From positions 558,001 through 622,000 of the forward strand of contig NZ_CP108462.1 in the NCBI RefSeq assembly GCF_036226365.1: a DNA stretch of 64,000 nt, written 5' to 3'. Source of the DNA: Streptomyces sp. NBC_01262 (GTDB taxonomy: Bacteria; Actinomycetota; Actinomycetes; Streptomycetales; Streptomycetaceae). Shown here in pieces: positions 11,009 to 26,449 of this stretch. Positions within the stretch are counted from its first letter, which is position 1; the number at the start of each line of letters is the position of its first letter. The position numbers were made by a program, and so were the translations under genes. Below the pieces are notes generated by a model. It did not search any database. It had not been told where the DNA came from and saw only the letters and a list, made by a program, of their open reading frames with translations.

Positions 11009-11785
11009 TCAGGCGGGGGCGATCATGCCGGCCGACAGATCGATGTCGGCGCCGCACAGGCCCGGCATGGCGAGCATCGCCAGCAGCGCCTGGGCGACCT
11101 CGGGTTCCTCCACCAGCCGGCCCAGCGCGGAGCGCGACGCGAAGGCGCGCTCGGCCTCCTGCGGCGTGGAGCCGGTGAGTTCGGCCTCCAGACGGAAGTT
11201 GCGGTCCATGCGGGGGCCGCGTACGGGGCCGGGGGAAAGGGTGTTGACGGACACCCCGAGCGGGCCGACCTCGCCCGCGAGGGTGCGGGTCAGGCCGATC
11301 AGGGCCATCTTGGACGCCGTGTAGGGCGTCCGGTTCAGCAGTGGCCGCTTGCCGCTGACCGAGGCGACGTTGACGACATCGCCCCGCCCGGCGGCGATCA
11401 TGGCGGGCAGGAAGGCCCGGCAGACCAGGTAGACGCCCCGGACGTTGGCCGCGAAGACCTCGTCCCACTCGGCCGGTTCGATGTCGACGAGCTGCTTGAC
11501 AGGCCCGGCGACCCCCGCGTTGTTGACCAGGACCGAGATGTCCTCGTCGGCCAGTTCGGCGGCGAGCGCCGCGACCGAGGCGGGGTCGGCCACGTCGCAG
11601 CGGGCGACCCGCGCCTTGCCCCCGGCCTCCTCGACGGCCGCCGCCCCCGCCGCGAGGGCGTCGGGGTTGCGGCCGACCAGGACGACGCGGGCACCGGCGC
11701 CGGCGAGTGCGACGGAGAAGGCCCGGCCGAGGGGGCCGCCTCCCCCGGTGACCAGCGCGGTGCGGCCCGCGACGACGTGGCTCAC
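11009..11785 (-). CDS. Short-chain dehydrogenase/reductase (catabolic operon)
   Basis: A 258-residue SDR with the cofactor motif TGGGGPLGRAFS (about residues 12-23), NNAG near 90, catalytic Ser in NVASVSGKRP and YTASK (Tyr/Lys) near 158, and SPGPVRGPRM after the active site. The GTG at 11785 overlaps the stop of the HisD-like gene as GTGA, so it is the last gene of the leftward operon and coupled to it. It probably oxidises or reduces an alcohol/ketone intermediate of the aromatic pathway; the substrate is unknown. Confidence 0.85.
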   Translation of the reverse strand: MSHVVAGRTALVTGGGGPLGRAFSVALAGAGARVVLVGRNPDALAAGAAAVEEAGGKARVARCDVADPASVAALAAELADEDISVLVNNAGVAGPVKQLVDIEPAEWDEVFAANVRGVYLVCRAFLPAMIAAGRGDVVNVASVSGKRPLLNRTPYTASKMALIGLTRTLAGEVGPLGVSVNTLSPGPVRGPRMDRNFRLEAELTGSTPQEAERAFASRSALGRLVEEPEVAQALLAMLAMPGLCGADIDLSAGMIAPA

Positions 11786-13110
11786 GCGGAGGTCCCCTCG
11801 AAGCCGGAGCCCTGCGTGGCCCAGGACAGCGGATCGCCGCCGTACTTGGCGGCCCGCAGGTCCCCGGAGCGGGCGTGGCCCTCGAAGAGCTCGACCCGTG
11901 CGGCACGCCCGCACAGCCGGCCGAGTTCCGCGCTGGAGTCCGGGTTCGTGACCTCCTGGTACGTCACCGTCTTGAGGTACTTGCCGACCCACAGCCCGCC
12001 GGTGTAGCGGGCGGCGCCCCGCGTGGGCAGCACATGATTCGTGCCGATGACCTTGTCCCCGTACGAGACACACGTGCCCTCGCCCAGGAACAGCGCCCCG
12101 TACTGGGTCATCCGCTCCAGGGCCAGGCGCGGCTCGGCCGTCAGGACCTGGACGTGCTCGGAGGCGAACTCGTCGGCGAGCGACCAGAGTTCGTCCATCG
12201 TGTCGACGACGATGACCTGGCCGTGGTCGCGCCAGGACGGACCGGCGAAGTCGTTGGTCGGCATGTCGGGCAGGATCGCCTCGATGTGCTCGATGGTCCG
12301 GCGGCCGACCTCCTCGGAGGTGGTGATGAGGACCGCCGGTGAGTCCGGGCCGTGCTCGGCCTGGGAGAGCAGGTCGACGGCGCAGGTGAAGGGGTCTGCC
12401 TGTTCGTCGGCGAGGACCAGGATCTCGGTGGGCCCGGCGAACAGGTCGATGCCGATCTGCCCGAAGAGCTGGCGCTTGGCCTCGGCGACGTACGCGTTGC
12501 CAGGGCCGGCGATGAGGTTGACCGCCGTCATGGTCTCGGTGCCCACGGCCATCGCGGCGACCGCCTGGACCCCGCCGAGCAGCCAGATCTCGTCCGCGCC
12601 CGCGAAGTGCGCGGCGGCGACCGTCGCGGCGGGGATCTCGCCCCGGATCGGCGGGGTGCAGGCCACGACGTGCGGGACGCCGGCGACCTTGGCCGTGATG
12701 ATCGTCATGTGGGCGGAGGCGGTCAGCGGGTAGCGGCCGCCGGGGATGTAGGCGCCGGCCGCGTGGACCGGGACGTGCTTCTGGCCGAGCCGCACTCCGG
12801 GCAGGGTCTCGATCTCGAACTCGCCCATCGAGGCGAGCTGCGCCTCGGCGAAGGTGCGGACGTTGCTCTGCACGGCGTGGATGTCGTCGATGACCTGCTG
12901 CGGGAGCGAGGCGATGATCTCCTCGATCCGGTCCGCGGAGAGCCGGAAGGACTCCGGGCTCCATTTGTCGAACTTCTCGGAGTACTCGCGCACGGCCGCG
13001 TCGCCGCGCTCGCGGATGTCGGCGATGACGCCCGAGACCGTCTCCCGGACGGCGGCGAGGTCGGCGGTGACCTGTTCCTTCGGAACGGCGTTCTTCAGAG
13101 TCGTGCGCAC
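11782..13110 (-). CDS. Histidinol-dehydrogenase-like (HisD/HpsN superfamily) dehydrogenase
   Basis: A 442-residue member of the HisD family, which oxidises an alcohol to a carboxylate in two NAD-dependent steps with a zinc ion. Seen: GGRYPLTASAHMTIITAKVA, PGNAYVAEAKRQLFG, DLLSQAEHGPDSPA with the Gln/His zinc ligands (near residue 250), ASEHVQVLT with the Glu-His catalytic pair (near 320), and NHVLPTRGAARYTGGLWVGK. Biosynthetic HisD usually reads LPTGGTARFSSGL there, and no other his gene is nearby, so this is a catabolic paralog. The GTG at 13110 has GGAAGG about 8 bases upstream. It lies between a cupin and an SDR in the operon. Confidence 0.8.
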   Translation of the reverse strand: MRTTLKNAVPKEQVTADLAAVRETVSGVIADIRERGDAAVREYSEKFDKWSPESFRLSADRIEEIIASLPQQVIDDIHAVQSNVRTFAEAQLASMGEFEIETLPGVRLGQKHVPVHAAGAYIPGGRYPLTASAHMTIITAKVAGVPHVVACTPPIRGEIPAATVAAAHFAGADEIWLLGGVQAVAAMAVGTETMTAVNLIAGPGNAYVAEAKRQLFGQIGIDLFAGPTEILVLADEQADPFTCAVDLLSQAEHGPDSPAVLITTSEEVGRRTIEHIEAILPDMPTNDFAGPSWRDHGQVIVVDTMDELWSLADEFASEHVQVLTAEPRLALERMTQYGALFLGEGTCVSYGDKVIGTNHVLPTRGAARYTGGLWVGKYLKTVTYQEVTNPDSSAELGRLCGRAARVELFEGHARSGDLRAAKYGGDPLSWATQGSGFEGTSA

Positions 13111-13142
13111 AGCGGGGGCCTTCCCTTGAGAGAGGAGATTGG

Positions 13143-13667
13143 TCAGGGGTTCATGGGGTTCATGGGGTCGTGGAGCAGGGAGCCGAGCACGTCCCTGCCC
13201 AGGGTCTTCACCAGGCTCTCGGTGAACTCGCCGTCCACCAGGACGAACACCATCCGGGCGACCGCGCCCGAGCGGTTCTCCCAGCGGTGGTCGGTGCCCC
13301 GCTGCACCACCACGTCGCCCGCGCGCAGCACGGTCTCGGAGTCGTCGAGTACGAGGACGACCTCGCCTTCGAGGACGATGCCGTAGTCCACGGACTGCGT
13401 ACGGTGCGTGGGCGACACGACGCCGGGCGGGAACTCGTTGATCCGGATCTTGGTGCCGTTGGGCTCGGGCGGGACGCTGAGCGACACCCGCGTCGGGTCG
13501 GGCTCGTCGGCGGCGACCGGGGCCGGCATGGCGGCGGTGGACCACATCTCGTAGAAGAGGGCTCCGTCCGGCGCGGTGCGGACGACCGGCGGCGGCCCGT
13601 CCGAGAGGAAGACGGAGACGCCGTCCCCGGTGTGGCCGGTGACGACCCGGCGCGGCTCGAAGGTCAT
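13143..13667 (-). CDS. Cupin-domain protein of aromatic catabolic operon
   Basis: A 174-residue single-cupin protein. The first cupin motif is modified (SPTHRTQSVDYGIVLEGEV: H-R-T...D-Y instead of HxH...E) and the second is GDVVVQRGTDHRWENRSG; this pattern occurs in a common actinobacterial group next to aromatic-degradation genes. Residues 1-60 precede the barrel. The C-terminus ends in a short MNPMNP repeat (bases 13146-13163), probably a slippage duplication. Function unknown: it could be a small dioxygenase, isomerase or sensor. It lies between the dioxygenase and the HisD-like gene, 33 bases from the latter. Confidence 0.7.
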   Translation of the reverse strand: MTFEPRRVVTGHTGDGVSVFLSDGPPPVVRTAPDGALFYEMWSTAAMPAPVAADEPDPTRVSLSVPPEPNGTKIRINEFPPGVVSPTHRTQSVDYGIVLEGEVVLVLDDSETVLRAGDVVVQRGTDHRWENRSGAVARMVFVLVDGEFTESLVKTLGRDVLGSLLHDPMNPMNP

Positions 13668-13680
13668 CGGGCTCCCCCGC

Positions 13681-14619
13681 TCAGACCGGCGGCGCGCTGA
13701 ACAGCACGTCCGGGTCGTTGAACTGCTCCTTGGCGATCAGCTCGCTCATCGGGTCGGCCGTGCCCCACTGGTCCTGGGTCAGCGGGTCGTCCACGTCGTG
13801 CAGACCGGGGTGCCAGGTGTCCTCGTCCAGGACGGCCAGCTCGGTGGTGTACTCCACGGTGTTGCCGTGCGGGTCGTGGAAGTACGAGAAGGTGTTGTCA
13901 CCGGCGGTGTGCCGCCCGGGGCCCCAGGTCAGCCGGGTGCCCGCGCGCAGCGCGCGTCCCGTGCCGCGCATGTACTCCTCGACGCCGCGCATCTCGAACG
14001 AGGCGTGGTGCAGGGAGACATGGGGGCCGCGGGCGATGGCGAAGCTGTGGTGGACGGGGCTGCAGCGCATGAAGTACATCAGCTCGCCCATGTGGTCGCT
14101 GTAGAGCGTGTCGGACAGGCGGAAGCCGAGGTGCTTCTCGTAGAAGGCCCTCAGGGCTTCGGGGTTGCGCGAGTTGACGACGCAGTGCGAGAGGCGGACC
14201 GGGATGGCCTCGCGCTCCTCGATCCTGCGGTGCTTACGGGTCTCGACGTCGCTGGAGACCTCGACGACCCGGCCGTCGGTGTCGAAGAAGCGGAAGCCGT
14301 AGCCGCCTCCGGGGGTGTCCAGCGTGCCCGGCTCGGAGATCACCTGGACGTCCTCGGCCGCGTTGAGGCGGGCGGCGAGCCGGTCCACGTCGGCGGCGCT
14401 GCCGGCGCCGAAGGCGACCAGGTCCATGCGCTTGCGCTCGTCCTTGCGGATGCGGACGACGTACTGCTCGGGGCTGCCCTCGGCCGCGAAGAACGCGATG
14501 CCGCTGTCGTTGGCGACCTCGGTGAGGCCCCAGGTGGTGCCGTAGAAGGCCCGCTGCGTGTCGAAGTCCGGCACCGCCAGGTCGACATGGCGCAGATGGG
14601 TGATCGGCTGGAAGGTCAC
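13681..14619 (-). CDS. Two-domain extradiol (VOC) ring-cleavage dioxygenase
   Basis: A 312-residue vicinal-oxygen-chelate protein with two halves. The N-terminal half (about 5-120) begins THLRHVDLAVPDFDTQRAFY; the C-terminal half (about 140-270) begins VRLSHCVVNSRNPEALRAFY. The expected Fe(II) ligands are visible as His in RLSHCVV, His in PHVSLHHASFEM and Glu in NTVEYTTEL. Such proteins perform meta-cleavage of catechols. Start is the GTG at 14619, 11 bases after the stop of the FAH-family gene; the frame stays open far upstream but without support. With that hydrolase it forms the core of a meta-cleavage pathway. Confidence 0.85.
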   Translation of the reverse strand: MTFQPITHLRHVDLAVPDFDTQRAFYGTTWGLTEVANDSGIAFFAAEGSPEQYVVRIRKDERKRMDLVAFGAGSAADVDRLAARLNAAEDVQVISEPGTLDTPGGGYGFRFFDTDGRVVEVSSDVETRKHRRIEEREAIPVRLSHCVVNSRNPEALRAFYEKHLGFRLSDTLYSDHMGELMYFMRCSPVHHSFAIARGPHVSLHHASFEMRGVEEYMRGTGRALRAGTRLTWGPGRHTAGDNTFSYFHDPHGNTVEYTTELAVLDEDTWHPGLHDVDDPLTQDQWGTADPMSELIAKEQFNDPDVLFSAPPV

Positions 14620-14630
14620 GGTGCTGCTCC

Positions 14631-15632
14631 TCAGCGGGCGTGGGGGTCGGACGCGTCGGGGACGCAGGTGTTGCGCTGGGCGCCGAGGCCGGTGATCTGC
14701 GCCTCCATGACGTCGCCCGGCTTCAGGAAGGTCCCCCAGTGGGCGCCGTTGCCGGCCGGGGAGCCGGTGAGCAGCAGGTCGCCGGGGCGCAGGGTGGTGG
14801 TGGCGGAGGCGTACTCGATGAGCCTGGGGATGTCGAAGATCATGTCCTTGGTGGACTCGTCCTGCCGGACGGTGCCGTTGTGCCGCAGCGTGATCCGCAG
14901 GTCGCCGGGGTCGGGCAGGAAGGCGGCGGGCACCAGGAAAGGGCCGGTCGGCAGGAAGGTGTCGGCGTTCTTGGCGGTGAACCAGTCGGTGCCGATGGCC
15001 TTGAGGTCGGGCCGGTAGAGGCGGTCGCGGGTGGTGAGGTCGTTGGAGATCGTGTAGCCGGCGACGTACGCCATGGCGTCCTCGCGGCGGATGTGCCGGC
15101 CCTCGCGACCGATGACCAGGGCGAGTTCGAGCTCCCAGTCGTGCTGCTCGCCGAGCGCCGGGAGGATCACGTCGTCGTACGGGCCGGTGATGGCGCGCGG
15201 GCTGCCGAGGAAGATGTACGGGACGCCGCCCCGGGCCCGCTCGTCCATCATCTTCTCGGCGTCGGCCCGGGCCTCCTGCGGGGTGGCGCCGTGCACGCTC
15301 TCGCGCTCGGCGGCGACCAGGTCGACCACGTGGCGGCGGTAGTTGGCGCCGCTCTGCAGGATCTGACCGGGCTCCAGGGGCGCGTGGATCCGCAGGCTCC
15401 CCAGGTCGTGCCAGGCGCCGCCCGGGTCCTGCGCGAGCGCGGCGAGCCGGGCCAGCGAGGCGTCCCAGTCCTCGACCAGGGCCCTTACGTGCGGCGCCGT
15501 GTCGGACAGCTCGCGCACCCGATGGCCGGTGACGAGCCCGGCGAAGGGCCGGCCGCCGTCCACCGAGGCAGTCGAGAAGGTGCCGAGGGCGAACGGTCCC
15601 GCGTGGACGGGCAGCGGGTGGGGATCGGACAC
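14631..15632 (-). CDS. Fumarylacetoacetate hydrolase family protein (first of two)
   Basis: A 333-residue FAH-superfamily enzyme, which acts on ring-cleavage products (C-C hydrolysis, decarboxylation or hydration) using a Mg/Ca ion. The core is visible: QSGANYRRHVVDL, then DWELELALVIGREGRHI (acidic metal ligands), YTISNDLTTRDRL, DWFTAKNADTFLPTGPFLV and LRPGDLLLTGSPAGNGA. The GTG at 15632 is the first gene of the leftward operon, and the 248-base spacer to the divergent operon holds the shared palindrome at 15701-15717. Which FAH reaction it performs cannot be read from sequence. Confidence 0.85.
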   Translation of the reverse strand: MSDPHPLPVHAGPFALGTFSTASVDGGRPFAGLVTGHRVRELSDTAPHVRALVEDWDASLARLAALAQDPGGAWHDLGSLRIHAPLEPGQILQSGANYRRHVVDLVAAERESVHGATPQEARADAEKMMDERARGGVPYIFLGSPRAITGPYDDVILPALGEQHDWELELALVIGREGRHIRREDAMAYVAGYTISNDLTTRDRLYRPDLKAIGTDWFTAKNADTFLPTGPFLVPAAFLPDPGDLRITLRHNGTVRQDESTKDMIFDIPRLIEYASATTTLRPGDLLLTGSPAGNGAHWGTFLKPGDVMEAQITGLGAQRNTCVPDASDPHAR

Positions 15633-15700
15633 GAGCGGGCTCCTTTGCAGCGGCTTGCCGCCACGCTAGGCACGCGCGGTGGGGCAGCGGAAATACCCAT

Positions 15701-15717
15701 CCGCGATGCCTGGCATC
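15701..15717. promoter_or_regulatory. Shared palindromic operator, copy 1
   Basis: CCGCGATGCCTGGCATC, containing the palindrome GATGCC-T-GGCATC. The same 17 bases occur at 21514-21530. This copy lies in the 248-base promoter region between two divergent catabolic operons, 69 bases before the FAH start. Its two copies, one beside the LysR gene, make it the best candidate for the binding site of that regulator. Confidence 0.65.
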
Positions 15718-15880
15718 GGGTGCGCGATAGCGGTGCGGGGGCCTTGCGGGAGCGGGGTCCGGCGGCCCATCGCGCTGCGGGATGCATGACGTGTTCCTTG
15801 GCGATGACTGGATCCGTTGACTGTGCATCAACGGGCCAAGCAAGGTCGGGCCAGGCACCGACCAGAACCGAGGAGCACAC

Positions 15881-16186
15881 GTGATCGTCGAGCACGCCGA
15901 GCTGGCCATCGAGGCCGGCCGCGAGGAGGAGTTCGAGGCGGCCTTCGCGCAGGCCCGCAAGGTGATCTCCCAGGCCGGGGGCTTCCAGTGGGTCGAGCTG
16001 CTGCGCGGCGTGGAACGTCCGGCCGTCTACCTGCTGCTGGTCGGCTGGGAGTCCGTCGAGGCGCACAACGTGGGCTTTCGCGGGTCGGCCGCCTTCGCAC
16101 GGTGGCGGGAACTGATCGGGCCGTTCTTCGCCTCGCCGCCGGACGTCGAGCACTTCGGCGTCCTCGGTGAGCGTTTCACCGGCTGA
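15881..16186 (+). CDS. Antibiotic-biosynthesis-monooxygenase (ABM) domain protein
   Basis: A 101-residue ferredoxin-like dimeric alpha-beta barrel protein. It opens VEHAELAIEAGREEEFEAAF and contains GFQWVELLRGVERPAVYLLL, typical of ABM proteins, some of which oxygenate phenolic substrates without cofactor. Starts at a GTG with GAGGAG about 7 bases upstream. It is the first gene of the rightward operon, 34 bases before the FAD monooxygenase. It could be a quinol monooxygenase acting with that enzyme, or an accessory protein. Confidence 0.75.
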   Translation: MIVEHAELAIEAGREEEFEAAFAQARKVISQAGGFQWVELLRGVERPAVYLLLVGWESVEAHNVGFRGSAAFARWRELIGPFFASPPDVEHFGVLGERFTG

Positions 16187-16220
16187 TCTCCCCGTACTTC
16201 TACTTGCTAAGGATCGACCC

Positions 16221-17345
16221 ATGGCTGTCTCGAAGGTGCTCGTCGTCGGCGGCGGCATCACCGGTAGCGTGCTGTCACTCGCCCTCGCCCAGCGCGGCGT
16301 CACCGTCGATCTCGTCGAGATATCGCCGCAGTGGTTCGGCGTCGGCCACGGGATCACCGTGCAGGGCAACGCCCTCAAGGCGCTGCGCAGCGTCGGCGTG
16401 CTCGACCGGGTGCTGGAGAAGGCCGTGCCGTTCAACAACATGCGGCTGCGGCAGGCCGACGGCTCGCTGATCGTCGAGCTGGCCACGCCCCGTACCGGCG
16501 GCGAGGACCTGCCGTCCACGACCGGCGCGATGCGCTCGGACCTGCAGGACGCGCTGTGCGACGCGGTGTACGCGGCCGGGGTCGAAGTGCGGCTGGGGCT
16601 GAGCGTGGCGTCCTTCGAGCAGTCCCCGGACCATGTGGACGTCACCTTCACCGACGGCACGGCCGGCCGCTACGACCTGGTGGTTGGCGCCGACGGGCTG
16701 AAGTCGCAGATCCGTTCGCTGATCGGCATCGAGACGGTGCCGGAGCCGGTCGGCATGAGCATCTTCCGGGTGGTCGCGGACCGGCCGGCCGAGATGGACT
16801 GCGCGGAGGTCTACTACGGCGGGCCGCGCTACAAGGCCGGCTACAGCCCGATCTCCGACACCAAGTGCTACGCCTACCTGCTGGACGAGAACCTCGACGC
16901 CTCCCTGGTCGGCTCCCGCGCCCCGCTGTCGCTGCTGCGCGAGCGCGGCCAGGGCTACGGCGGCACCTGGGGCCGGATCCTGGAGTCCCTGCCGGACGAC
17001 ACGGCCGTGGACTACCGCTGGATCGAGGCCGTCCTGGTGGAGAGCCCGTGGAACCGCGGCCGGGTGATGATCATCGGGGACGCGGCGCACGCCTGTCCCC
17101 CGCTGATCGCCCAGGGCGCCGCGATGTGCGCCGAGGACGCGGTCGTGCTGGCCGAACTGGTCACCGGCCAGGGCCCGTTGGAGACCGCGCTCAAGGACTT
17201 CATGGCCCGCCGGATGCCGCGTGTGCGCAAGGTCCTGGAGAACTCGCTCAAGCTCGCCGAGTGGGAGATCCACCCGGATACGCCGGGCGCCGACCCGGGC
17301 GGCATCATGCAGGAGACCCTCGCCTACCTCCAGGCGGAGGCGTGA
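16221..17345 (+). CDS. FAD-dependent aromatic hydroxylase (PHBH/salicylate-hydroxylase-like)
   Basis: A 374-residue class A flavoprotein monooxygenase. Three hallmarks are seen: the Rossmann motif VVGGGITGSVLSLALAQRG at the N-terminus, the DG motif DLVVGADGLKSQIR (about 155) and the GD motif GRVMIIGDAAHACPP (about 285). It probably hydroxylates an aromatic acid or phenol with NAD(P)H to give the catechol for the extradiol dioxygenase. ATG 16221 was chosen because it has AAGGA 9 bases upstream and starts right before the Rossmann strand. The next gene starts within its stop codon (GTGA). Confidence 0.88.
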   Translation: MAVSKVLVVGGGITGSVLSLALAQRGVTVDLVEISPQWFGVGHGITVQGNALKALRSVGVLDRVLEKAVPFNNMRLRQADGSLIVELATPRTGGEDLPSTTGAMRSDLQDALCDAVYAAGVEVRLGLSVASFEQSPDHVDVTFTDGTAGRYDLVVGADGLKSQIRSLIGIETVPEPVGMSIFRVVADRPAEMDCAEVYYGGPRYKAGYSPISDTKCYAYLLDENLDASLVGSRAPLSLLRERGQGYGGTWGRILESLPDDTAVDYRWIEAVLVESPWNRGRVMIIGDAAHACPPLIAQGAAMCAEDAVVLAELVTGQGPLETALKDFMARRMPRVRKVLENSLKLAEWEIHPDTPGADPGGIMQETLAYLQAEA

Positions 17346-18379
17346 GAAGCGCTCCGGTCGTCGCCAGCCCGGTCGTTGACTTCCACGGCCACCTGGCGGC
17401 CCCCGCCGCCGACGCCCTGGTGGCGGGCACCCCCGGCTTCGCCGCGGAGCTGGCCGCCGAGCAGCACGCGCACTCCCCGGAGAGCCTGGCCGCCAACCGG
17501 GCCCAGCTGGGCCGGCTCGGCCCGCAGCTCACCGATGTGGCCGTCCGGCTCGCGGCGATGGACGCGATGGGCGTGGACGTCCAGGTCGTCGGGCCGATGC
17601 CGATGCACCACTACTGGGCGGACCGGGCGCTGGCCGCCCGGCTGTCCCGCGCCACGAACGAGGCGGTGGCCGACCACTGCGCGCAGGCCCCGGACCGGCT
17701 GGTGGGCCTGGGCACGGTGCCGCTGCAGCACCCGCATCTGGCGGTCGCGGAGCTGTCCCGGGCGGTGGCCGAGTACGGGCTGCGCGGCATCAGCGTCTCC
17801 ACGACGGTGGACGGCCGCGAGCTGGCCGACAGCCGCCACGACCCGGTGTGGGCGTGCGCGCAGGAGCTGGGGGTGCTGGTCTTCATCCACCCGTGGGGCT
17901 GCTCGCTGGGCGAGCGGCTGGCCACCCAGTACCTGGGCAACACAGTCGGGCAGCCGGTGGAGACGACGGTGGCGCTGTCCCACCTGATCTTCACCGGGGT
18001 GCTGGACCGCTTCCCCGGCCTGAAGCTGGTCGTGGCGCACGGGGGCGGCTATCTGCCGACGTACATCGGCCGCTCCGACCACGCCTGGCATGCCCGGCAG
18101 GACGCGCGCGGCTGCCGGGAGACACCCAGCAGCTATCTGCGGCGCATGTGGTTCGACTCCCTGGTCTACACCCCGCAGGGCCTGCGGTATCTGGTCGACC
18201 AGGTCGGCGGCGACCGGGTGGTGCTGGGCACGGACCACCCCTTCGACATGGGGGTGGACGACCCGGTGAAGCGGCTGGACGCCGCCGGGTTCGCCCCCGC
18301 CGAGCGGGACGCGATCGCCGGCGGGAACGCCGCCCGGCTGCTGGGGATCCCGTACTGCGGGACAGAGCGGAAGGGCTGA
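17342..18379 (+). CDS. Amidohydrolase-family (ACMSD / gamma-resorcylate decarboxylase-like) enzyme
   Basis: A 345-residue TIM-barrel amidohydrolase of the amidohydrolase_2 group, whose members mostly decarboxylate aromatic or muconate acids using a metal. Metal-site motifs visible: VDFHGHLAAP (HxH near residue 14), VFIHPWGCS (His near 180), VVAHGGGYLPTYIGR (near 230) and VLGTDHPFDMG (Asp near 298). Starts at GTG 17342, overlapping the hydroxylase stop by 4 bases. In this operon it probably removes CO2 from a carboxylated substrate or ring-cleavage product. A plain hydrolase role is also possible. Confidence 0.83.
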   Translation: MRSAPVVASPVVDFHGHLAAPAADALVAGTPGFAAELAAEQHAHSPESLAANRAQLGRLGPQLTDVAVRLAAMDAMGVDVQVVGPMPMHHYWADRALAARLSRATNEAVADHCAQAPDRLVGLGTVPLQHPHLAVAELSRAVAEYGLRGISVSTTVDGRELADSRHDPVWACAQELGVLVFIHPWGCSLGERLATQYLGNTVGQPVETTVALSHLIFTGVLDRFPGLKLVVAHGGGYLPTYIGRSDHAWHARQDARGCRETPSSYLRRMWFDSLVYTPQGLRYLVDQVGGDRVVLGTDHPFDMGVDDPVKRLDAAGFAPAERDAIAGGNAARLLGIPYCGTERKG

Positions 18380-18383
18380 GCCG

Positions 18384-19127
18384 ATGGACACGGCGGCCAC
18401 GGCGGAAGAAGAGCTGGCCCGGGCCCGCTCCACGTTCCGCAACCAGGGGCGGTGGGGCGCGGACGACGCGCTCGGCACGCTCAACTTCCTCGACAACGGC
18501 AAGCGCGCCCATGCCGCGAGCCTGGTCCGCCGCGGCAGACCGCTCTCGCTGGCGGGCGTCGGCGCCCGCTGGCACCTGGACCGGCACCGGCCGGAGGCGT
18601 TCAGCGGCCGCGGGGTGCTGCTGGACGTGGCGCGCGCCGTCGCCGGTCCGGGCGGGGAGCTGGCGGACGGCTTCCCCATCCGCGAGGAGCATCTGCGCAT
18701 GGCCGTGGAGGCGCAGGGGGCCACCTCCACCGTGCGCCGTGGCGACATCGTGCTGGTGCGCACCGGGCAGCTGGCCCGCTGCCGCCGTCTGGGCGACTGG
18801 ACGGGATACGCCTCCGGGCCCGCGCCCGGCCTGTCGATCAGCACGCTGGGCTGGCTGCACGGCACCGACATCGCCGCCGCGGCCACCGACACCGCGGGCT
18901 TCGAGGTCCGCCCGCACGAGATCGCGTCCGCCGCGACCGCCGCGACCGCCCCGCTCCGCGAGATCGCCCTCCCCGGCCTCGGGCTGCCGCTCGGCGCGAA
19001 GTTCGACCTGGAGGAGCTGGCCGAGGACTGCGCCGCCGACGGCGTGTACGAGTTCCTGCTGGTCGCGGCCCCGCTGCCGGTGTCCGGCGGCGATCACGCC
19101 CCCGTCAACCCGATTGCCATCAAATGA
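18384..19127 (+). CDS. Cyclase-family (kynurenine-formamidase-like) protein lacking its metal-binding segment
   Basis: A 247-residue protein of the cyclase / KynB-like fold. The N-terminus (NQGRWGADDALGTLNFLDNG) and the C-terminal part (GRGVLLDVAR, RRGDIVLVRTGQLARCR, ATDTAGFEVRPHE, HAPVNPIAIK) align well with members that are about 310-330 residues long. Between residues 55 and 75 the sequence jumps from PLSLAGVGARWHLDRHRPEA to FSGRGVLLD; the central 70 or so residues with the metal-ligand motif (H-x-G-T-H/Q-x-D) are absent. The frame is intact and coupled to the next gene (ATGA), so this is an in-frame deletion rather than a frameshift. It may be inactive or have a new role. Confidence 0.75.
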   Translation: MDTAATAEEELARARSTFRNQGRWGADDALGTLNFLDNGKRAHAASLVRRGRPLSLAGVGARWHLDRHRPEAFSGRGVLLDVARAVAGPGGELADGFPIREEHLRMAVEAQGATSTVRRGDIVLVRTGQLARCRRLGDWTGYASGPAPGLSISTLGWLHGTDIAAAATDTAGFEVRPHEIASAATAATAPLREIALPGLGLPLGAKFDLEELAEDCAADGVYEFLLVAAPLPVSGGDHAPVNPIAIK

Positions 19128-20500: not shown

Positions 20501-20503
20501 AGC

Positions 20504-21469
20504 ATGCGTTTCGCCACGTACGAGTTCCAGGGCGCCGAGCGGGCCGGTGTGGTCCTGGAAGACCGCATCCACCCGATGCCCGCCGGCGTCACCCTGCTGT
20601 CGCTGATCCAGGAGGGCGGCGACGCGCTGCGCGAGGAGGGCGTACGCGCCCTCGCGGGCAGCGACACCGTCGCGGTGGCGGACGTACGGCTGCTGCCGCC
20701 GCTGCCGACCCCGCCGAGCATCCGCGACTTCGTGGGCTTCGAGGCGCACATCGAGGGCGTCAGCAAGAGCCTGGACGGCCTGGAGCACGTCCCGGAGGTC
20801 TGGTACCGGGCGCCGGCCTTCTACTTCACCAATCCGCACGCCTGCCACGGCGCGTACGACGATGTCGCGGTGCCGGAGAACTGCCAGGTGCTGGACTTCG
20901 AGATCGAGGTCGCCGCGGTGATCGGCCGCTCCGGCCGGGACCTCACATCGGAGCAGGCCCGCGAGCACATCATCGGCTACACGGTCTTCAACGACTGGTC
21001 GGCCCGCGACCTGCAAAAACCCGAGCGCGAGCTGGGCCTGGGCTTCTCCAAGGGCAAGGACTTCGCCAACACCCTCGGCCCCTGGCTGGTCACCGCCGAC
21101 GAGCTGGAGCACCGCCGGGACGCCGACGGCTACCTCGACCTGGAGATGACGGTGACCCTCAACGGCACCCTCATCGGCCGCGACACCCTCGCCAACGCCT
21201 CCTGGACCTTCGACGAGATGGTCGCCTACGCCTCCCGGGGCACCTGGGTCCGCCCCGGCGACCTGCTGGGCTCGGGCACCTGCGGCTGGGGCGCCCTGGC
21301 CGAGCACTGGGGCCGCAACGGCGAGCGCACTCCCCCGCCGCTGAAGCCCGGCGACCAGGTCACGCTGTCCGTCGAGGGCATCGGCACGATCAGCAACCGC
21401 ATCGTCCCCGGCAGCGGCCCCCACCCCCTGCCCCGCGCCCGCAAGCGGGGGCGCACCCCGCGCCCCTGA
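20504..21469 (+). CDS. Fumarylacetoacetate hydrolase family protein (second of two)
   Basis: A 321-residue FAH-superfamily enzyme, last gene of the rightward catabolic operon, 3 bases after the oxidase stop. Core features: PSIRDFVGFEAHIEGV, YFTNPHACHG, LDFEIEVAAVIGRSGRD (acidic metal ligands), YTVFNDWSARDLQ, GKDFANTLGPWLV and VRPGDLLGSGTCGWGAL. It differs clearly from the other FAH protein at 14631, so the two probably act at different steps (for example hydrolysis or decarboxylation and hydration of the opened ring). The C-terminal PRARKRGRTPRP tail is basic and unconserved. Confidence 0.85.
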   Translation: MRFATYEFQGAERAGVVLEDRIHPMPAGVTLLSLIQEGGDALREEGVRALAGSDTVAVADVRLLPPLPTPPSIRDFVGFEAHIEGVSKSLDGLEHVPEVWYRAPAFYFTNPHACHGAYDDVAVPENCQVLDFEIEVAAVIGRSGRDLTSEQAREHIIGYTVFNDWSARDLQKPERELGLGFSKGKDFANTLGPWLVTADELEHRRDADGYLDLEMTVTLNGTLIGRDTLANASWTFDEMVAYASRGTWVRPGDLLGSGTCGWGALAEHWGRNGERTPPPLKPGDQVTLSVEGIGTISNRIVPGSGPHPLPRARKRGRTPRP

Positions 21470-21487
21470 GGCCTGAAATCGCGGCGG

Positions 21488-21522
21488 GCATCGCGGCGGC
21501 GCACGATTGGCCGCCGCGATGC
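21488..21522 (+). terminator. 13-bp inverted repeat after the catabolic operon
   Basis: GCATCGCGGCGGC at 21488-21500 is perfectly complementary to GCCGCCGCGATGC at 21510-21522, with a 9-base loop. It starts 18 bases after the FAH stop, so it probably ends the rightward operon. Its right arm shares bases with the regulator palindrome at 21518-21530. Confidence 0.6.
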
Positions 21523-21530
21523 CTGGCATC
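21514..21530. promoter_or_regulatory. Shared palindromic operator, copy 2
   Basis: CCGCGATGCCTGGCATC, identical over 17 bases to 15701-15717. It lies 116 bases before the LysR start and overlaps the terminator-like repeat. This fits autoregulation by the LysR protein, in addition to control of the two catabolic operons. Confidence 0.65.
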
Positions 21531-21645
21531 ATTTCTTCGCCGTGATTCTGAGATTTTCCCGATCGCTCTTCTCCATCCCGTAATCCCTCATTACGCTCAC
21601 GTTTCATCGCAATGAAGCGGGCCGAATAGGAGCGGAGAGCATCCC

Positions 21646-22635
21646 ATGGGTCTCGGAGCCATCGACCTCAATCTGCTGGTTGCCCTGGAGGCCCTGCTCG
21701 AGGACCGGAATGTCACGCACGCGGGCGTACGGCTGTCCACCAGCCAGTCCGCGATGAGCGGCTCCCTGGCCCGGCTGCGCCGGCACTTCAACGACGAGCT
21801 GCTCGTGCGCGTGGGCCGCAACTACGAGCTCACCCCGCTCGCCGAGCGCCTCCTCCCGGTGGTCCAGGACACCCTGCGCAAGGCCGAGGAAGCCCTCTCC
21901 CTGACCCGGCAGTTCGATCCCGCCCAGAGCCGTCAGCGGTTCTCCGTGGTGATGTCGGACTACGCGATGACGGTGTTCGTCGAGCCGCTCCTGCGCGTGC
22001 TGGCCGAGGAGGCGCCGGGGGTGCGGATCGACTTCCACCCGCTGGTGTCCGGCGAGCCGGAGAACGAGACCCACTTGCGCTGCCACGACGTGATGGTGGT
22101 GCCGCTGGGCTACGGCCTGCCCGGCATCAGCGAGACCGTCATGCACGACCGCTTCGTGTGCATCGTCGACCGCAACAACCCCCGGGTGCGCGACGGACGC
22201 CGGCTCACCCTGCGCGACCTCGCCGAGATGCCGCACGCCGTGGCCGGGTTCGGCAAGAGCCCCACCCCGGCCGACCGGCAGCTGGAGACCCTGGGCATCA
22301 CCCCGCAGGTGCAGGTCAGCACGCCCGGCTTCAGCGTCCTGCCGTTCCTGGTCGCGGGCACCGACCTGGTCGCCCTGGTGCCCGAGCGCCTCGCCACCCG
22401 CTACGAGCCGTTCGTCGGCTGTCTCGCCGTGCCGACCCCGTTCCCCGACGTACCGCTCATCGAGGCGCTGTACTGGCACCACAACCGGCACACCGACCCG
22501 GGCCACCGCTGGCTGCGCGAGACGATCCGCCAGGTCGGCGCGGCGCTGGACGACGGAGCGAGTGCCACCCCTGCCGCGACCAGCGACGACTCCCCGGTCG
22601 TGCTGCCCTTCGCGCGCTCCGCCGCGGCCGGCTGA
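21646..22635 (+). CDS. LysR-family transcriptional regulator (NodD/NahR-like)
   Basis: A 329-residue LysR-type regulator. The N-terminal winged helix is IDLNLLVALEALLEDRNVTH followed by LSTSQSAMSGSLARLRRHFN; the DELLVRVGRNYELTPLAE stretch and the effector domain starting FSVVMSDYAMTVFVEPLL resemble the NodD/NahR/DntR branch, which senses aromatic compounds. ATG 21646 has GGAGCGGAGAG upstream. It is next to the second FAH gene and downstream of the palindrome copy at 21514, so it is the likely activator of both divergent catabolic operons. Residues beyond 300 are an unconserved Ala/Ser/Asp tail. Confidence 0.87.
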   Translation: MGLGAIDLNLLVALEALLEDRNVTHAGVRLSTSQSAMSGSLARLRRHFNDELLVRVGRNYELTPLAERLLPVVQDTLRKAEEALSLTRQFDPAQSRQRFSVVMSDYAMTVFVEPLLRVLAEEAPGVRIDFHPLVSGEPENETHLRCHDVMVVPLGYGLPGISETVMHDRFVCIVDRNNPRVRDGRRLTLRDLAEMPHAVAGFGKSPTPADRQLETLGITPQVQVSTPGFSVLPFLVAGTDLVALVPERLATRYEPFVGCLAVPTPFPDVPLIEALYWHHNRHTDPGHRWLRETIRQVGAALDDGASATPAATSDDSPVVLPFARSAAAG

Positions 22636-22720
22636 TAGCAGGCATACGTACCGCGCGTTTCCCCCGAGCCCTGCGGCTACGTAGCGTGAGCTGCGAAAAC
22701 GCCGAACGCCGGAGGTCACA

Positions 22721-23509
22721 GTGAGCCGCAATCGCCTGCAGGGCAGGACCGTCGTCATCACCGGAGCCGCGCAGGGCCAGGGAGCCGCGGAGGTGGAGGC
22801 CGCAGCCCGCGAGGGCGCCACGGTCATCGCGACCGATCTGCTCGACGAGGCCGGGGACAAGCTCGCGCAGGGGCTCCGGGCCGAGGGCCTGGACGTGCAC
22901 TTCCGCCACCTCGACGTCGCCCGCGAGGACCAGTGGCAGGACCTGGCCGCCTGGCTCGCCGAGCACCACGCCCCGCTGCACGGCTTGGTCAACAACGCGG
23001 GCATCCCCATGCGGGCCCGCCTCGGCTCGGTGGGCCTCGACGACTGGAACCGTGCCTTCGCTGTCAACACCACCGGCCCGATGCTCGGCATGCAGGCCCT
23101 GGTCCCCCTGATGACGGCGCCGGAGGGCGGCTCCGTGGTCAACATCGGCTCCGTGGCCGGTCTCACAGCGCACCACGCGGTCGCGTACACCGCCAGCAAG
23201 TGGGCCCTGCGCGGCCTGTCCAAGGTCGCCTCACTGGAACTGGGCGCCAAGGGCGTCCGGGTGAACCTCATCCACCCCGGCTTCATCGAGACCCCTCTGA
23301 TGGCCACCGCCAATCCGGTGTTCCAGCGGGCGCACCTGGAGATGACCCCGCAGGGCCGGGCCGGCACCCCGGACGAGGTCGCGCCGCTGGTGGTCTATCT
23401 GCTCTCCGACGAGTCGGGTTACGTCAACGGCGCCGAGATCACCGTGGACGGCGGCTACTCGGCGCACGGCGGCGTCAAGCACATCACGAACGCGCTGGAC
23501 GCCCAATAA
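22721..23509 (+). CDS. Short-chain dehydrogenase/reductase (classical)
   Basis: A 262-residue classical SDR: TGAAQGQGAAEVEAAAREGA as cofactor loop (about 14-33), LVNNAGIP near 89, NIGSVAGLTAHHAVAYTASK with the catalytic Ser, Tyr and Lys (about 142-161) and DGGYSAHGG near the C-terminus. Starts at GTG 22721 with GGAGG 6 bases upstream, 85 bases after the LysR stop. It probably serves the neighbouring catabolic locus, but the substrate is not evident. A strong terminator follows it. Confidence 0.85.
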   Translation: MSRNRLQGRTVVITGAAQGQGAAEVEAAAREGATVIATDLLDEAGDKLAQGLRAEGLDVHFRHLDVAREDQWQDLAAWLAEHHAPLHGLVNNAGIPMRARLGSVGLDDWNRAFAVNTTGPMLGMQALVPLMTAPEGGSVVNIGSVAGLTAHHAVAYTASKWALRGLSKVASLELGAKGVRVNLIHPGFIETPLMATANPVFQRAHLEMTPQGRAGTPDEVAPLVVYLLSDESGYVNGAEITVDGGYSAHGGVKHITNALDAQ

Positions 23510-23510
23510 G

Positions 23511-23546
23511 CAAAGGGGCCCGGTCCGCGCGGACCGGGCCCCTTTG
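23511..23546. terminator. Bidirectional terminator, 18-bp perfect arms
   Basis: A fully self-complementary 36-base sequence beginning CAAAGGGGCCCGGTCCGC and reading the same on both strands. It starts 2 bases after the SDR stop and ends 4 bases before the stop of the convergent VOC gene. CTTTG at each end gives a short T-run for both directions. Confidence 0.88.
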
Positions 23547-23549
23547 CCG

Positions 23550-23981
23550 CTATTGGGCCTCGGTGTTCTCGATGAGCTCGATCAGATTGCCCTCCGGGTC
23601 GCTCACCCAGGCGAAGCGGTAGCCCGGCTGCGGCGACGGGCCCGGCTTCATCACCTCGCCCGCCCCGTGCGCGAGCAGCGCCTCGTAGACCGGGTCCAGC
23701 TCGGGGACGTTGACCGCGAAGTGCCCGTATCCCTCGGTGAGGGCGGCCTCCAGCGGGTTGGCCGCGCGCAGTCCGGCCGCCGAGCCGGTGCGGGCCAGCA
23801 GCTCGATGCGCCAGCCGTGCTCGATGTTCTCCAGGACCACGGCCGACAGCCCCGGGCCCGCCAGCGTGAACTCGAAGTACGTACGCAGCCCGAAGGCCTC
23901 GCTGTACCAGGCGGTGGCGGCCGCCAGGTCGCGTACGTTGACGCCGACGTGGTCGAAGCGGGCGTGGTGTGCGCCGGTCAT
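23550..23981 (-). CDS. VOC-family (glyoxalase/dioxygenase-like) protein
   Basis: A 143-residue vicinal-oxygen-chelate protein with two beta-alpha-beta-beta-beta modules. Metal-ligand candidates are His in ARFDHVGVNVRDL (residue 11), Glu in WRIELLART, His in GYGHFAVNVPEL (near residue 87) and Glu in NLIELIENTE. Pattern and length resemble lactoylglutathione lyase / methylmalonyl-CoA epimerase relatives; the activity is unassigned. It lies 4 bases downstream of the SDR on the same strand, so both are one operon, and is convergent with the SDR at 22721 across a terminator. Confidence 0.75.
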   Translation of the reverse strand: MTGAHHARFDHVGVNVRDLAAATAWYSEAFGLRTYFEFTLAGPGLSAVVLENIEHGWRIELLARTGSAAGLRAANPLEAALTEGYGHFAVNVPELDPVYEALLAHGAGEVMKPGPSPQPGYRFAWVSDPEGNLIELIENTEAQ

Positions 23982-23985
23982 CCGC

Positions 23986-24756
23986 TCAGCCCGCCATCGC
24001 GCTGTCGCCGCCGTCGACCATGAGGTTCGCGCCGTTGACGAAGGCCGCCTCGTCCGAGCAGAGGAAGGCCGCCACCCGCGCGATGTCCTCCGGCCGGCCG
24101 ATCCGGCCCACCGGGATCCGGGCCTCCAGGGCCGCCCTGGGCCCGTCGGGGTCGTCCAGGAAGGGCGCGGTGGCCGAGGTATGGATCATTCCGGGGGCGA
24201 CGGTGTTGACGCGGATGCCGTGCTCGGCGCCCGCGGCGCACATGTGCATGCTCATCGCGAGGACACCGCCCTTGGCGGCGCCGTGCGGCACCATCGGCAT
24301 GAAGGGGGCCCCGCGGACGGCGGCGACGGACGCGACGTTGAGAACGGCGCCGCCGCCGCGGGTGATCAGGTGCGGCCAGGCGGCCTGCGTACAGAAGTAG
24401 GGGATGTCCAGCTCGTTCTTGATCGTGAAGTACCAGTCCTCGGCGGGCATGGTCGCGAACGGGCCGTTGCGCAGGGCGGAGGCGTTGTTGTACAGGATGT
24501 CGATGCCGCCGAACGCCTCCACACCCGCCTCGATCCACTCCTTGGCGCCCTCGGGGGTGGACAGGTCGACCGGCGCGAGGGACCGCATGACTCCGCCGGC
24601 CTTCTCCACCAGCGCCACCGTCTCGGCGTCGGCCCCGGGATTGATGTCGCAGCCGAATACGGTGGCGCCCTCCGCGGCGAACACCTGTGCGGCGGCTCTG
24701 CCGATTCCCGCCCCGGTACCGCTGATGAAGGCGATTTTCCCGGTCAGCCGTCCCAT
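23986..24756 (-). CDS. SDR-fold protein with His in place of the catalytic Tyr
   Basis: A 256-residue SDR. The cofactor loop SGTGAGIGRAAAQVFAAEGA, DIN after beta-2 and YNNASALRNG (NNAS rather than NNAG) are present. At the active site the sequence reads ASVAAVRGAPFMPMVPHGAA followed by Lys: the position of the YxxxK Tyr is His (bases near 24289), while the Ser and Lys are kept. The codon reading is clear in the sequence. It may have altered catalysis, as SDR activity normally depends on that Tyr. ATG 24756 preceded by GAAGGG is preferred to a longer frame to 24819. It follows the aromatic locus and may belong to it. Confidence 0.78.
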   Translation of the reverse strand: MGRLTGKIAFISGTGAGIGRAAAQVFAAEGATVFGCDINPGADAETVALVEKAGGVMRSLAPVDLSTPEGAKEWIEAGVEAFGGIDILYNNASALRNGPFATMPAEDWYFTIKNELDIPYFCTQAAWPHLITRGGGAVLNVASVAAVRGAPFMPMVPHGAAKGGVLAMSMHMCAAGAEHGIRVNTVAPGMIHTSATAPFLDDPDGPRAALEARIPVGRIGRPEDIARVAAFLCSDEAAFVNGANLMVDGGDSAMAG

Positions 24757-26279: not shown

Positions 26280-26319
26280 GGCAGTTCCCCGGGTCCGGTT
26301 CGGCTGAACACCCAGCGAA

Positions 26320-26382
26320 TTGACAGCGGCCTCTTTTGTCAAGGACATTTGAGCCGTTTGGATGAGATTTGTCATATTGACA
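26320..26382. promoter_or_regulatory. TTGACA/TGTCAA inverted elements in divergent peptidase/sialidase promoter
   Basis: TTGACA (26320-26325) and TGTCAA (26337-26342) form one inverted pair; TGTCA-TAT-TGACA (26370-26382) forms a second. The elements double as -35 boxes for both directions. Repeated inverted half-sites in a shared promoter suggest one regulator for both genes. Confidence 0.45.
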
Positions 26383-26449
26383 TACAGAATGCCCGGATTG
26401 ACGGAGTGTCACCCCTCTCCCCCGCCGGACGGATGAGAGAAACAACCGC

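What the first reader, a model, noticed from the sequence alone, without database searches (positions are those of the whole stretch)
11009..24756. Uncharacterised meta-cleavage catabolic regulon next to the pca operon
Two divergent operons encode a hydroxylase, ABM protein, ACMSD-like decarboxylase, BBE-like oxidase, extradiol dioxygenase, two distinct FAH enzymes, cupin, HisD-like dehydrogenase and SDRs. I know of no described pathway with this combination. Logic: oxidation of a side chain (oxidase, HisD-like), decarboxylation or hydroxylation to a catechol, meta-cleavage, FAH steps. The substrate may be a plant-derived or multi-ring aromatic.
Basis: inference. Interest (0 to 1): 0.72.

Follow-up and report, generated by a model that had tools for sequence, protein, structure and literature searches.

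The report
Streptomycete aromatic ring-cleavage regulon
This actinomycete carries thirteen neighbouring genes, twelve of them kept in the same order in thirty related genomes, that are predicted to be controlled together by one LysR-type regulator and would likely hydroxylate, split and break down an aromatic ring from a still unknown compound.

Summary
It is a conserved unit: of 39 relatives with a close homologue of the decarboxylase, 30 keep twelve genes in the same order and strands. A 13-bp palindrome sits in the divergent promoter and before the LysR gene, and nowhere else exactly in the 9.74-Mb genome; it recurs in that promoter in 33 of 33 relatives tested. The cluster looks modular: a core (FMO, extradiol dioxygenase, two FAH proteins, ACMSD-like decarboxylase, cyclase, LysR) plus a peripheral set (BBE oxidase, HisD-like dehydrogenase, SDR, ABM). 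The same genome has a second core copy about 120 kb away. The decarboxylase keeps both carboxylate-binding arginines of ACMSD, so it likely acts after ring cleavage, not on a benzoate. Best reading: meta-cleavage of a resorcinol-type ring to an acylpyruvate, then hydrolysis to pyruvate and a 3-oxoacid. Support for the 3-oxoacid end is thin (CoA-transferase genes in 2 of 10 core loci). Substrate unknown. The window's own cyclase lacks its metal-site stretch. New variant of a known kind.

The parts
11009..11785 (-). A: short-chain dehydrogenase, last gene of the minus operon
   Evidence: Pfam PF00106; present in 35 of 39 close relatives
11782..13110 (-). B: HisD-like dehydrogenase, not the biosynthetic one
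   Evidence: TIGR00069 447 bits; the genome holds a second PF00815 gene at 7.69 Mb with a higher family score; aligned metal-site and Glu-His positions kept (their roles recalled)
13143..13667 (-). C: cupin
   Evidence: PF07883; only 3 of 39 close relatives have it within the stretch held
13681..14619 (-). D: two-domain VOC (type I) extradiol dioxygenase
   Evidence: 254 bits to PDB 3b59; TIGR02295 HpaD 110 bits, below its cut-off; His, His, Glu positions aligned with catechol 2,3-dioxygenase
14631..15632 (-). E: FAH-family protein 1, predicted acylpyruvate hydrolase
   Evidence: PF01557 217 bits; best NCBIfam hits 2,4-didehydro-3-deoxy-L-rhamnonate hydrolase and HpaG C-terminal, both below cut-off; PDB hits
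15705..15717 (.). Palindrome GATGCCTGGCATC in the E/F divergent promoter, predicted LysR operator
   Evidence: at the same place in 33 of 33 relatives tested
15881..16186 (+). F: ABM-domain protein
   Evidence: PF03992
16221..17345 (+). G: group A FAD-dependent hydroxylase (PRK06847 subfamily)
   Evidence: NF005313 406 bits, over its cut-off of 372
17342..18379 (+). H: ACMSD-like decarboxylase
   Evidence: PF04909; human ACMSD 192 bits; Arg, Trp, His, Asp, Arg positions kept
18384..19127 (+). I: cyclase-family hydrolase with an internal in-frame shortening (247 aa), likely inactive
   Evidence: PF04199; alignment lacks the stretch around the conserved W-D-x-x-x-H; nine relatives called have 284-326 aa
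19124..20500 (+). J: BBE-like FAD oxidase with both His and Cys flavin-linkage positions
   Evidence: PF01565; aligned with PDB 9p1o and 9p1p, where both residues are present; EncM lacks the Cys (role of the residues recalled)
20504..21469 (+). K: FAH-family protein 2, of fumarylacetoacetase type
   Evidence: PF01557; PDB hits include fumarylacetoacetases over the catalytic stretch
21518..21530 (.). Second copy of the palindrome, before the LysR gene
   Evidence: a site (up to 1 mismatch) at this place in 21 of 33 relatives
21646..22635 (+). L: LysR-type regulator
   Evidence: PF03466 and PF00126
22721..23509 (+). M: short-chain dehydrogenase
   Evidence: PF13561; 37 of 39 relatives
23550..23981 (-). 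N: small VOC protein, possible member of the peripheral module
   Evidence: PF00903; next to BBE in L043 and L044; no operator copy found before it in the window
23986..24756 (-). O: short-chain dehydrogenase, travels with N
   Evidence: PF13561; N and O adjacent in relatives
5067..6508 (-). pcaJ and pcaI of the neighbouring pca operon, possible CoA-transferase for the pathway's 3-oxoacid
   Evidence: TIGR02428/TIGR02429; the pcaI is the only match (73 percent) in the genome at E <= 1e-30 to the scoA behind a congener's core cluster

Best explanation
It is a predicted LysR-controlled catabolic regulon whose products would likely hydroxylate a resorcinol-type (1,3-dihydroxylated) aromatic ring, cleave it in the extradiol (meta) manner and hydrolyse the open chain to pyruvate and probably a 3-oxoacid such as acetoacetate. 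Inferred scheme: the BBE oxidase, HisD-like dehydrogenase and SDRs oxidise an alcohol-bearing side chain; FMO G adds a hydroxyl; dioxygenase D opens the ring; because the ring carries a meta hydroxyl, the product is an acylpyruvate rather than a semialdehyde, so FAH protein E can cut off pyruvate and no aldehyde dehydrogenase, hydratase or aldolase is needed; H decarboxylates a dicarboxylate intermediate; K cuts the remaining diketone. Shown: gene content, synteny, palindrome, residue conservation and the second core copy. Not shown: substrate, order of reactions, any enzyme activity, and binding of L to the palindrome.
For: Domain calls. D keeps the ligand positions of working extradiol enzymes. 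H is nearest to ACMSD and keeps its Arg/Arg/Trp/His set (residues named in passages of PMC11650718). E's best relatives include an acylpyruvate-type C-C hydrolase, K's include fumarylacetoacetase. No aldehyde dehydrogenase, MhpD-type hydratase or aldolase was called among A-O. Synteny of twelve genes in 30 of 39 relatives. Palindrome at two promoters and nowhere else exactly in the genome (0.56-0.97 plus-strand matches expected), and in 33 of 33 relatives at the divergent promoter. A second core copy in the same genome. scoAB next to the core in a congener (L105) and scoAB plus an acetyl-CoA acetyltransferase in Cellulomonas L050. Precedent for the chemistry: Hcd pathway (passages of PMC6222606).
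Against: Intact scoAB is beside the core in only 2 of 10 core-type loci seen (L050, L105), so the acetoacetate end is weak. The window's cyclase is truncated inside, so either its step is dispensable, is done by the second copy, or the pathway is decaying. The cupin is in 3 of 39 relatives. E also resembles the HpaG decarboxylase/isomerase, so it need not be a hydrolase. In L051, L058 and L060 an H homologue sits with an aldehyde dehydrogenase (family checked for L051), which fits a semialdehyde pathway for that branch. No sequence of a characterised resorcinol-pathway enzyme was compared directly.
Confidence: 0.45

Rival explanations
1. The substrate is a flavonoid or isoflavonoid: G hydroxylates the A ring next to an existing hydroxyl and D opens it, as in the fde and ifc pathways, with the cupin and cyclase opening the lactone or pyranone left over.
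For: The published fde/ifc logic is FMO, VOC dioxygenase, cupin, and the A ring of flavonoids is resorcinol-type (passages). Window has FMO, VOC, cupin and LysR.
Against: The ifc paper reports IfcA homologues in Proteobacteria only. The cupin is in 3 of 39 relatives. BBE and HisD-like genes have no stated counterpart in the passages seen. FdeC, FdeE, IfcA and IfcB sequences were not at hand, so no direct comparison was made.
Confidence: 0.2
2. One reading: H is an aromatic-acid decarboxylase that makes a phenol or catechol, and the rest is an ordinary catechol meta pathway.
For: The amidohydrolase family holds gamma-resorcylate, 2,3-dihydroxybenzoate and 5-carboxyvanillate decarboxylases, which also match H.
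Against: ACMSD matches score 148-192 bits against 103 or less for benzoate-type enzymes; both ACMSD arginines are kept in 10 of 10 homologues aligned, though I did not test whether benzoate-type enzymes lack them. No aldehyde dehydrogenase, hydratase or aldolase called in A-O.
Confidence: 0.2
3. The cluster modifies or destroys an aromatic natural product or antibiotic (tailoring or resistance) instead of feeding growth.
For: EncM-like BBE, ABM, cyclase and SDR genes are common in polyketide clusters; one D homologue (L099) sits beside a type I polyketide synthase; J scores to BagK/FevA1 below cut-off.
Against: No synthase gene was seen in the gene calls around eleven window-type relatives, which were read by eye only. 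Two FAH proteins, an ACMSD-like enzyme and a second core copy point to degradation.
Confidence: 0.1
4. It belongs to lumichrome (riboflavin) catabolism, whose extradiol product also ends as pyruvate and acetoacetate.
For: LumE extradiol, LumY cupin hydratase and LumV FAH protein (outline and passages).
Against: The published cluster uses a P450, a thiamin enzyme, a xanthine-oxidase-like enzyme, a Rieske dioxygenase and an aldolase; none was called in A-O.
Confidence: 0.02

Closest known systems
hcdABC, 7-hydroxycoumarin / 3-(2,4-dihydroxyphenyl)propionate pathway, Pseudomonas mandelii 7HK4 (PMC6222606, passages)
   Same: Group A FMO on a resorcinol-type ring, type I extradiol dioxygenase, then hydrolysis of a 2,4-dihydroxy-6-oxo dienoate proposed to give acetylpyruvate and succinate
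   Different: Three genes; HcdC is not stated to be an FAH protein; no ACMSD-like, BBE, HisD-like, ABM or cyclase gene mentioned in the passages seen
fde (naringenin, Herbaspirillum seropedicae) and ifc (daidzein, Variovorax) clusters (PMC11303751, PMC11069340, passages)
   Same: FMO adds a hydroxyl beside an existing one, VOC dioxygenase opens the ring, cupin later; fde is under the LysR-type FdeR (FdeR's naringenin dependence from the abstract listing; its family recalled)
   Different: IfcA reported in Proteobacteria only; BBE, HisD-like and ACMSD-like genes not mentioned in the passages seen
Homoprotocatechuate (HpaD/HpaG) meta pathway
   Same: D matches HpaD and E matches HpaG at family level
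   Different: Below the curated cut-offs; no HpaE-type aldehyde dehydrogenase, hydratase or aldolase called
Lumichrome catabolism, lum cluster, Nocardioides simplex (PMC12746152, outline and passages)
   Same: Extradiol enzyme, cupin and FAH protein; ends in pyruvate and acetoacetate
   Different: P450, thiamin enzyme, Rieske dioxygenase and aldolase are absent here
ACMSD of the kynurenine pathway
   Same: H: nearest solved structures and kept active-site residues
   Different: No 3-hydroxyanthranilate dioxygenase or kynurenine genes called in the cluster

Membership tests
Type I (VOC) extradiol dioxygenase, for D | Two VOC modules with 2-His-1-Glu metal ligands in the second | tested here: met
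   Alignment to 3b59 and to catechol 2,3-dioxygenase keeps the His, His and Glu positions; ligand roles recalled
ACMSD, for H | Closest sequence match is ACMSD; Arg51, Trp194, His228 and Arg239 (Pseudomonas numbering) present | tested here: met
   residue roles from passages of PMC11650718
ACMSD, for H | Decarboxylates 2-amino-3-carboxymuconate semialdehyde | not testable with these tools
   needs enzyme assay; no kynurenine-type genes in the cluster
fde / ifc flavonoid A-ring pathway | Orthologues of FdeE/IfcA hydroxylase and FdeC/IfcB dioxygenase | not tested
   their sequences were not at hand; paper says IfcA homologues were found in Proteobacteria only
fde / ifc flavonoid A-ring pathway | Acts on flavonoids | not testable with these tools
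   needs growth or enzyme assay
Homoprotocatechuate meta pathway | HpaD and HpaG over their curated cut-offs | tested here: not met
   D 110 of 321 bits, E 151 of 276 bits
Homoprotocatechuate meta pathway | Semialdehyde dehydrogenase, hydratase and aldolase | tested here: not met
   none among the 15 genes A-O in Pfam scans
Hcd/orcinol-type resorcinol meta pathway | FMO, extradiol enzyme and C-C hydrolase of a beta-diketone/acylpyruvate | tested here: inconclusive
   family-level parts present; substrate class untested
Lumichrome (lum) pathway | P450, thiamin-dependent decarboxylase, xanthine-oxidase-like and Rieske enzymes | tested here: not met
   none among A-O
Histidinol dehydrogenase (biosynthetic), for B | Sole HisD of the genome | tested here: not met
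   two PF00815 genes; the other scores higher, 498.6 against 458.1 bits
LysR autoregulated divergent regulon | Shared operator at target and own promoter | tested here: met
   binding itself untested

The most novel reading that the evidence does not exclude
This is a new catabolic route of actinomycetes in which a resorcinol-type aromatic with an alcohol side chain is dismantled without any semialdehyde dehydrogenase, hydratase or aldolase: a BBE oxidase and a HisD-like four-electron dehydrogenase trim the side chain, and after meta-cleavage an acylpyruvase, an ACMSD-type decarboxylase working on an acyclic dicarboxylate, and a fumarylacetoacetase-type hydrolase finish it to pyruvate and acetoacetate. 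The core is a reusable cassette, kept in two diverged copies in one genome for two related substrates.
Probability: 0.3. Interest if true: 0.62.

Novelty: new variant of a known kind. Interest (0 to 1): 0.5.

Why it matters
A homologue of its decarboxylase at 75 percent identity or more is in 14 of 394 Streptomycetaceae genomes searched and a 50-59 percent homologue in 72 of 394, so an abundant soil family seems to carry an unassigned aromatic pathway. The 13-bp palindrome gives an immediate reporter for finding the inducer, and the ACMSD-like and HisD-like enzymes offer new members of families best known from other pathways. The correction that decarboxylation follows ring cleavage changes which substrates should be tried.

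Tried and rejected
Considered and set aside: (1) lumichrome pathway, signature enzymes absent. (2) Ordinary catechol/homoprotocatechuate meta pathway, no semialdehyde dehydrogenase, hydratase or aldolase called and HpaD/HpaG cut-offs not met. (3) H as a benzoate decarboxylase, weaker match and ACMSD arginines kept; not excluded. (4) Kpi 4-hydroxypyridine pathway (passages of PMC7356986): its dioxygenase is an amidohydrolase-1 protein, a different family from H or D.

Led nowhere: finding FdeC/IfcB-type sequences. One search (class of a betaproteobacterial MAG) gave 0 of 369 genomes at E <= 1e-40; (its order) gave 13 of 300 at E <= 1e-20. Eight regions taken from those hits (L129-L136) had at most three genes like the cluster's. 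One search (three MAGs named only by loci) gave weak matches in 2 of 3. The search for homologous proteins for D and G list only the best 120 and named no characterised protein. One search (PMC4440368) held one short mention of naringenin degradation and no fde gene. Literature searches found 0 papers. Rfam found nothing in the window at gathering scores.

Results against my reading: intact scoAB in only 2 of 10 core-type loci; L104 has only a short scoA-like piece; the window's cyclase is shortened; cupin in 3 of 39; the operator pattern with one mismatch has 49 strand hits in the genome against 18 for the reversed control, so only the exact sites are used as evidence; N and O have no operator copy before them; H paralogues of 50-59 percent identity are not all in core clusters (L051, L058, L060 pair H with an aldehyde dehydrogenase), so the 72 genomes are not 72 core clusters.

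Filters: one search tested the 33 of 46 loci (L009-L054) that had matches to E, F and L with E over 300 bits; one search aligned 16 of the 35 promoter stretches it extracted; one search used 79 loci, which are the best 80 of 122 related stretches. Loci reach only 10 kb from H, so counts for N, O and the MFS are lower bounds.
Full report
WHAT IS THERE. The interval 11009-24756 holds 15 genes. I call them A to O in map order. Minus strand, read from right to left: E FAH1 (14631-15632), D two-domain VOC extradiol dioxygenase (13681-14619), C cupin (13143-13667), B HisD-like dehydrogenase (11782-13110), A SDR (11009-11785). Plus strand: F ABM protein (15881-16186), G FAD hydroxylase (16221-17345), H ACMSD-like (17342-18379), I cyclase family (18384-19127), J BBE-like oxidase (19124-20500), K FAH2 (20504-21469), L LysR (21646-22635), M SDR (22721-23509). 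Minus again: N small VOC (23550-23981), O SDR (23986-24756). Basis: ORFs and start-site check, codon-position GC, Pfam, NCBIfam. Genes abut or overlap by a few bases within each row, as operons do.

IT IS A CONSERVED UNIT. A scan of named genomes with H kept 79 loci (best 80 of 122 related stretches). In 39 of 79, H is at least 70 percent identical. Of these 39: D 38, E 38, G 38, L 38, M 37, I 36, J 36, K 36, A 35, B 35, F 34, C 3. In 30 of 39 all twelve genes other than the cupin are present, and in all 30 they have the window's order and strands. They are mostly Streptomyces, with Saccharothrix, Actinomadura, Streptacidiphilus and Actinacidiphila. The unnamed congener G381 carries a contig of the same length and gene layout as Actinacidiphila oryziradicis (L023 and L106), so the window is probably from that genus. 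Within the genus, H is found at E <= 1e-100 in 4 of 35 genomes, two of them of the window type.

ONE REGULON. Aligned promoters between E and F in 16 loci show conserved blocks. One contains the perfect palindrome GATGCCTGGCATC at 15705-15717. The same 13 bases occur at 21518-21530, before the LysR gene. In the whole genome the exact pattern GATGCCWGSCATC is found at these two places only; 0.56 to 0.97 plus-strand matches are expected from composition. Allowing one mismatch gives many more hits than the reversed control (49 against 18 strand hits), so I rest on the exact sites. In relatives, GATGNCWGSCATC with up to one mismatch is in the E/F promoter of 33 of 33 loci tested (32 exact) and in the K/L gap of 21 of 33 (5 exact). 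In 20 of the 33 a further site lies shortly before M, as I read the list; the window has none there. L binding this site is inferred, not shown.

CORE AND PERIPHERY. The same genome carries a second set about 120 kb away, at roughly 441.4-448.6 kb of the contig: LysR, then E, I, G, H, D and K homologues (D 69, H 56, G 46 percent identical by search). This copy has a full-length cyclase match and lacks A, B, C, F, J. Two congeners have the core too (L104, L105). Among the other 40 loci, seven have at least four of six core proteins (L044, L050, L052, L055, L057, L061, L074); L052 and L074 have a metallo-beta-lactamase-fold protein where others have the cyclase. Conversely, Actinospica L043 and MAG L044 carry a sugar-type ABC transporter, an N-like VOC, a BBE, G and H, with B and A in L043 and E and D in L044 (transporter type read by eye from the translations). 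A Massilia plasmid has G-like (41 percent), HisD-like (56 percent) and ABM (42 percent) genes with another VOC and FAH, and a Novosphingobium plasmid has D, G, E and H homologues at 44, 37, 45 and 48 percent. I read this as a ring-cleavage cassette (D, E, G, H, I, K, L) joined here to a side-chain cassette (A, B, J, perhaps F, N, O).

HOW IT LIKELY WORKS. D matches 3b59 (254 bits) and keeps the His, His and Glu positions of catechol 2,3-dioxygenase, so ring opening by D is well supported at family level. G is in NCBIfam's PRK06847 subfamily, over cut-off, with no function named. H is nearest to human and bacterial ACMSD (192 to 148 bits; best benzoate-type enzyme 103). ACMSD binds the two carboxylates of its open-chain substrate with Arg51 and Arg239, beside Trp194 and His228 (passages of PMC11650718). 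H keeps the matching residues; both arginines are kept in all ten homologues aligned, while the tryptophan is not in L050, the Novosphingobium, Massilia and Rhizobium proteins. So H likely acts on a ring-cleaved dicarboxylate. I did not test whether benzoate-type enzymes lack these arginines. In L051, L058 and L060 an H homologue is paired with an aldehyde dehydrogenase-like gene, which again fits work after ring cleavage, though on a semialdehyde.

E matches 2,4-didehydro-3-deoxy-L-rhamnonate hydrolase and the HpaG C-terminal half best, both below cut-off; K matches fumarylacetoacetases among others and carries an N-D-W-S-A-R-D stretch that I recall from that enzyme. With two such proteins and no aldehyde dehydrogenase, MhpD-type hydratase or aldolase among A-O, the simplest logic is a ring with a meta hydroxyl: its extradiol product is an acylpyruvate, which FAH-type hydrolases cut. 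This chemistry has a precedent in the Hcd pathway, where 3-(2,3,5-trihydroxyphenyl)propionate is opened to a 2,4-dihydroxy-6-oxo dienedioate and a hydrolysis to a 2-hydroxy-4-oxopentenoate and succinate is proposed (passages of PMC6222606). An acetoacetate end is suggested by scoAB beside the core in L105 and by scoAB with an acetyl-CoA acetyltransferase (401 bits, against 292 or less for the 3-oxoadipyl-CoA thiolase models) in L050, but only in 2 of 10 core-type loci. The own genome's only homologue of that scoA is the pcaI of the pca operon at 5738-6508 (73 percent), a possible working link to the neighbouring pca genes; this is inference.

B is a second HisD-family gene of the genome; aligned with the other copy it keeps the positions I recall as zinc ligands and the catalytic Glu-His pair while its end diverges. 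J keeps both flavin-linkage residues of bicovalent BBE enzymes, unlike EncM (role recalled). Both fit oxidation of an alcohol; the substrate is unknown.

A SHORTENED GENE. I is 247 aa; the nine relatives called that have it are 284 to 326 aa, and Pfam scores fall from 63-70 bits to 47. The alignment shows the missing part includes the stretch around a conserved W-D-x-x-x-H. It is in frame. L020 and L037 lack I altogether. So this step may be dispensable, supplied by the second copy, or the pathway may be decaying here.

NOVELTY. I found no paper on this gene set in nine searches of open-licence PMC papers; subscription papers are mostly missing from that library. The parts and the style are known; the combination, with BBE, HisD-like and ACMSD-like enzymes under one operator, is a new variant.

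Noticed in passing
G000:C1 441.4-448.6 kb (L103): A second, diverged copy of the core cluster (LysR, E, I, G, H, D, K homologues) lies about 120 kb from the window's cluster, without the side-chain genes.
   Followed up: partly
window 18384-19127: The cyclase-family gene is shorter inside than its relatives and lacks the conserved metal-site stretch.
   Followed up: yes
window 6647-8371: A 574-aa ORF matches the PcaR/PcaU family in two stretches, with two IclR C-terminal and two HTH matches: it looks like two IclR regulators in tandem in one frame.
   Followed up: no
window 1121-2545: The pcaB-position gene scores higher to nitrosuccinate lyase (600 bits, cut-off 650) than to PcaB (403 bits, cut-off 356).
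   Followed up: no
L021:2211-4112 and 30 of 39 relatives: A TAT-signal-like secreted protein of about 630 aa with no Pfam match sits beside gene A in most Streptomyces copies; the window's genome has three homologues elsewhere.
   Followed up: partly
L021:16286-17803 and 26 of 39 relatives: An MFS transporter lies between M and N in most relatives but is missing from the window.
   Followed up: partly
L051, L058, L060 around 10-13 kb: H homologue, aldehyde dehydrogenase, LysR and a second amidohydrolase form another conserved small cluster in Amycolatopsis, Nocardia and Sciscionella.
   Followed up: no
L102 (Massilia putida plasmid) 12.5-20.7 kb: HisD-like, ABM and G-like genes lie in a cluster with DUF1302, DUF1329, YCF48 and MMPL genes, a set I recall from hydrophobic-substrate catabolism.
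   Followed up: no
window 24891-27583: A secreted C39-like peptidase and a BNR-repeat protein follow the cluster; no link to it seen.
   Followed up: no
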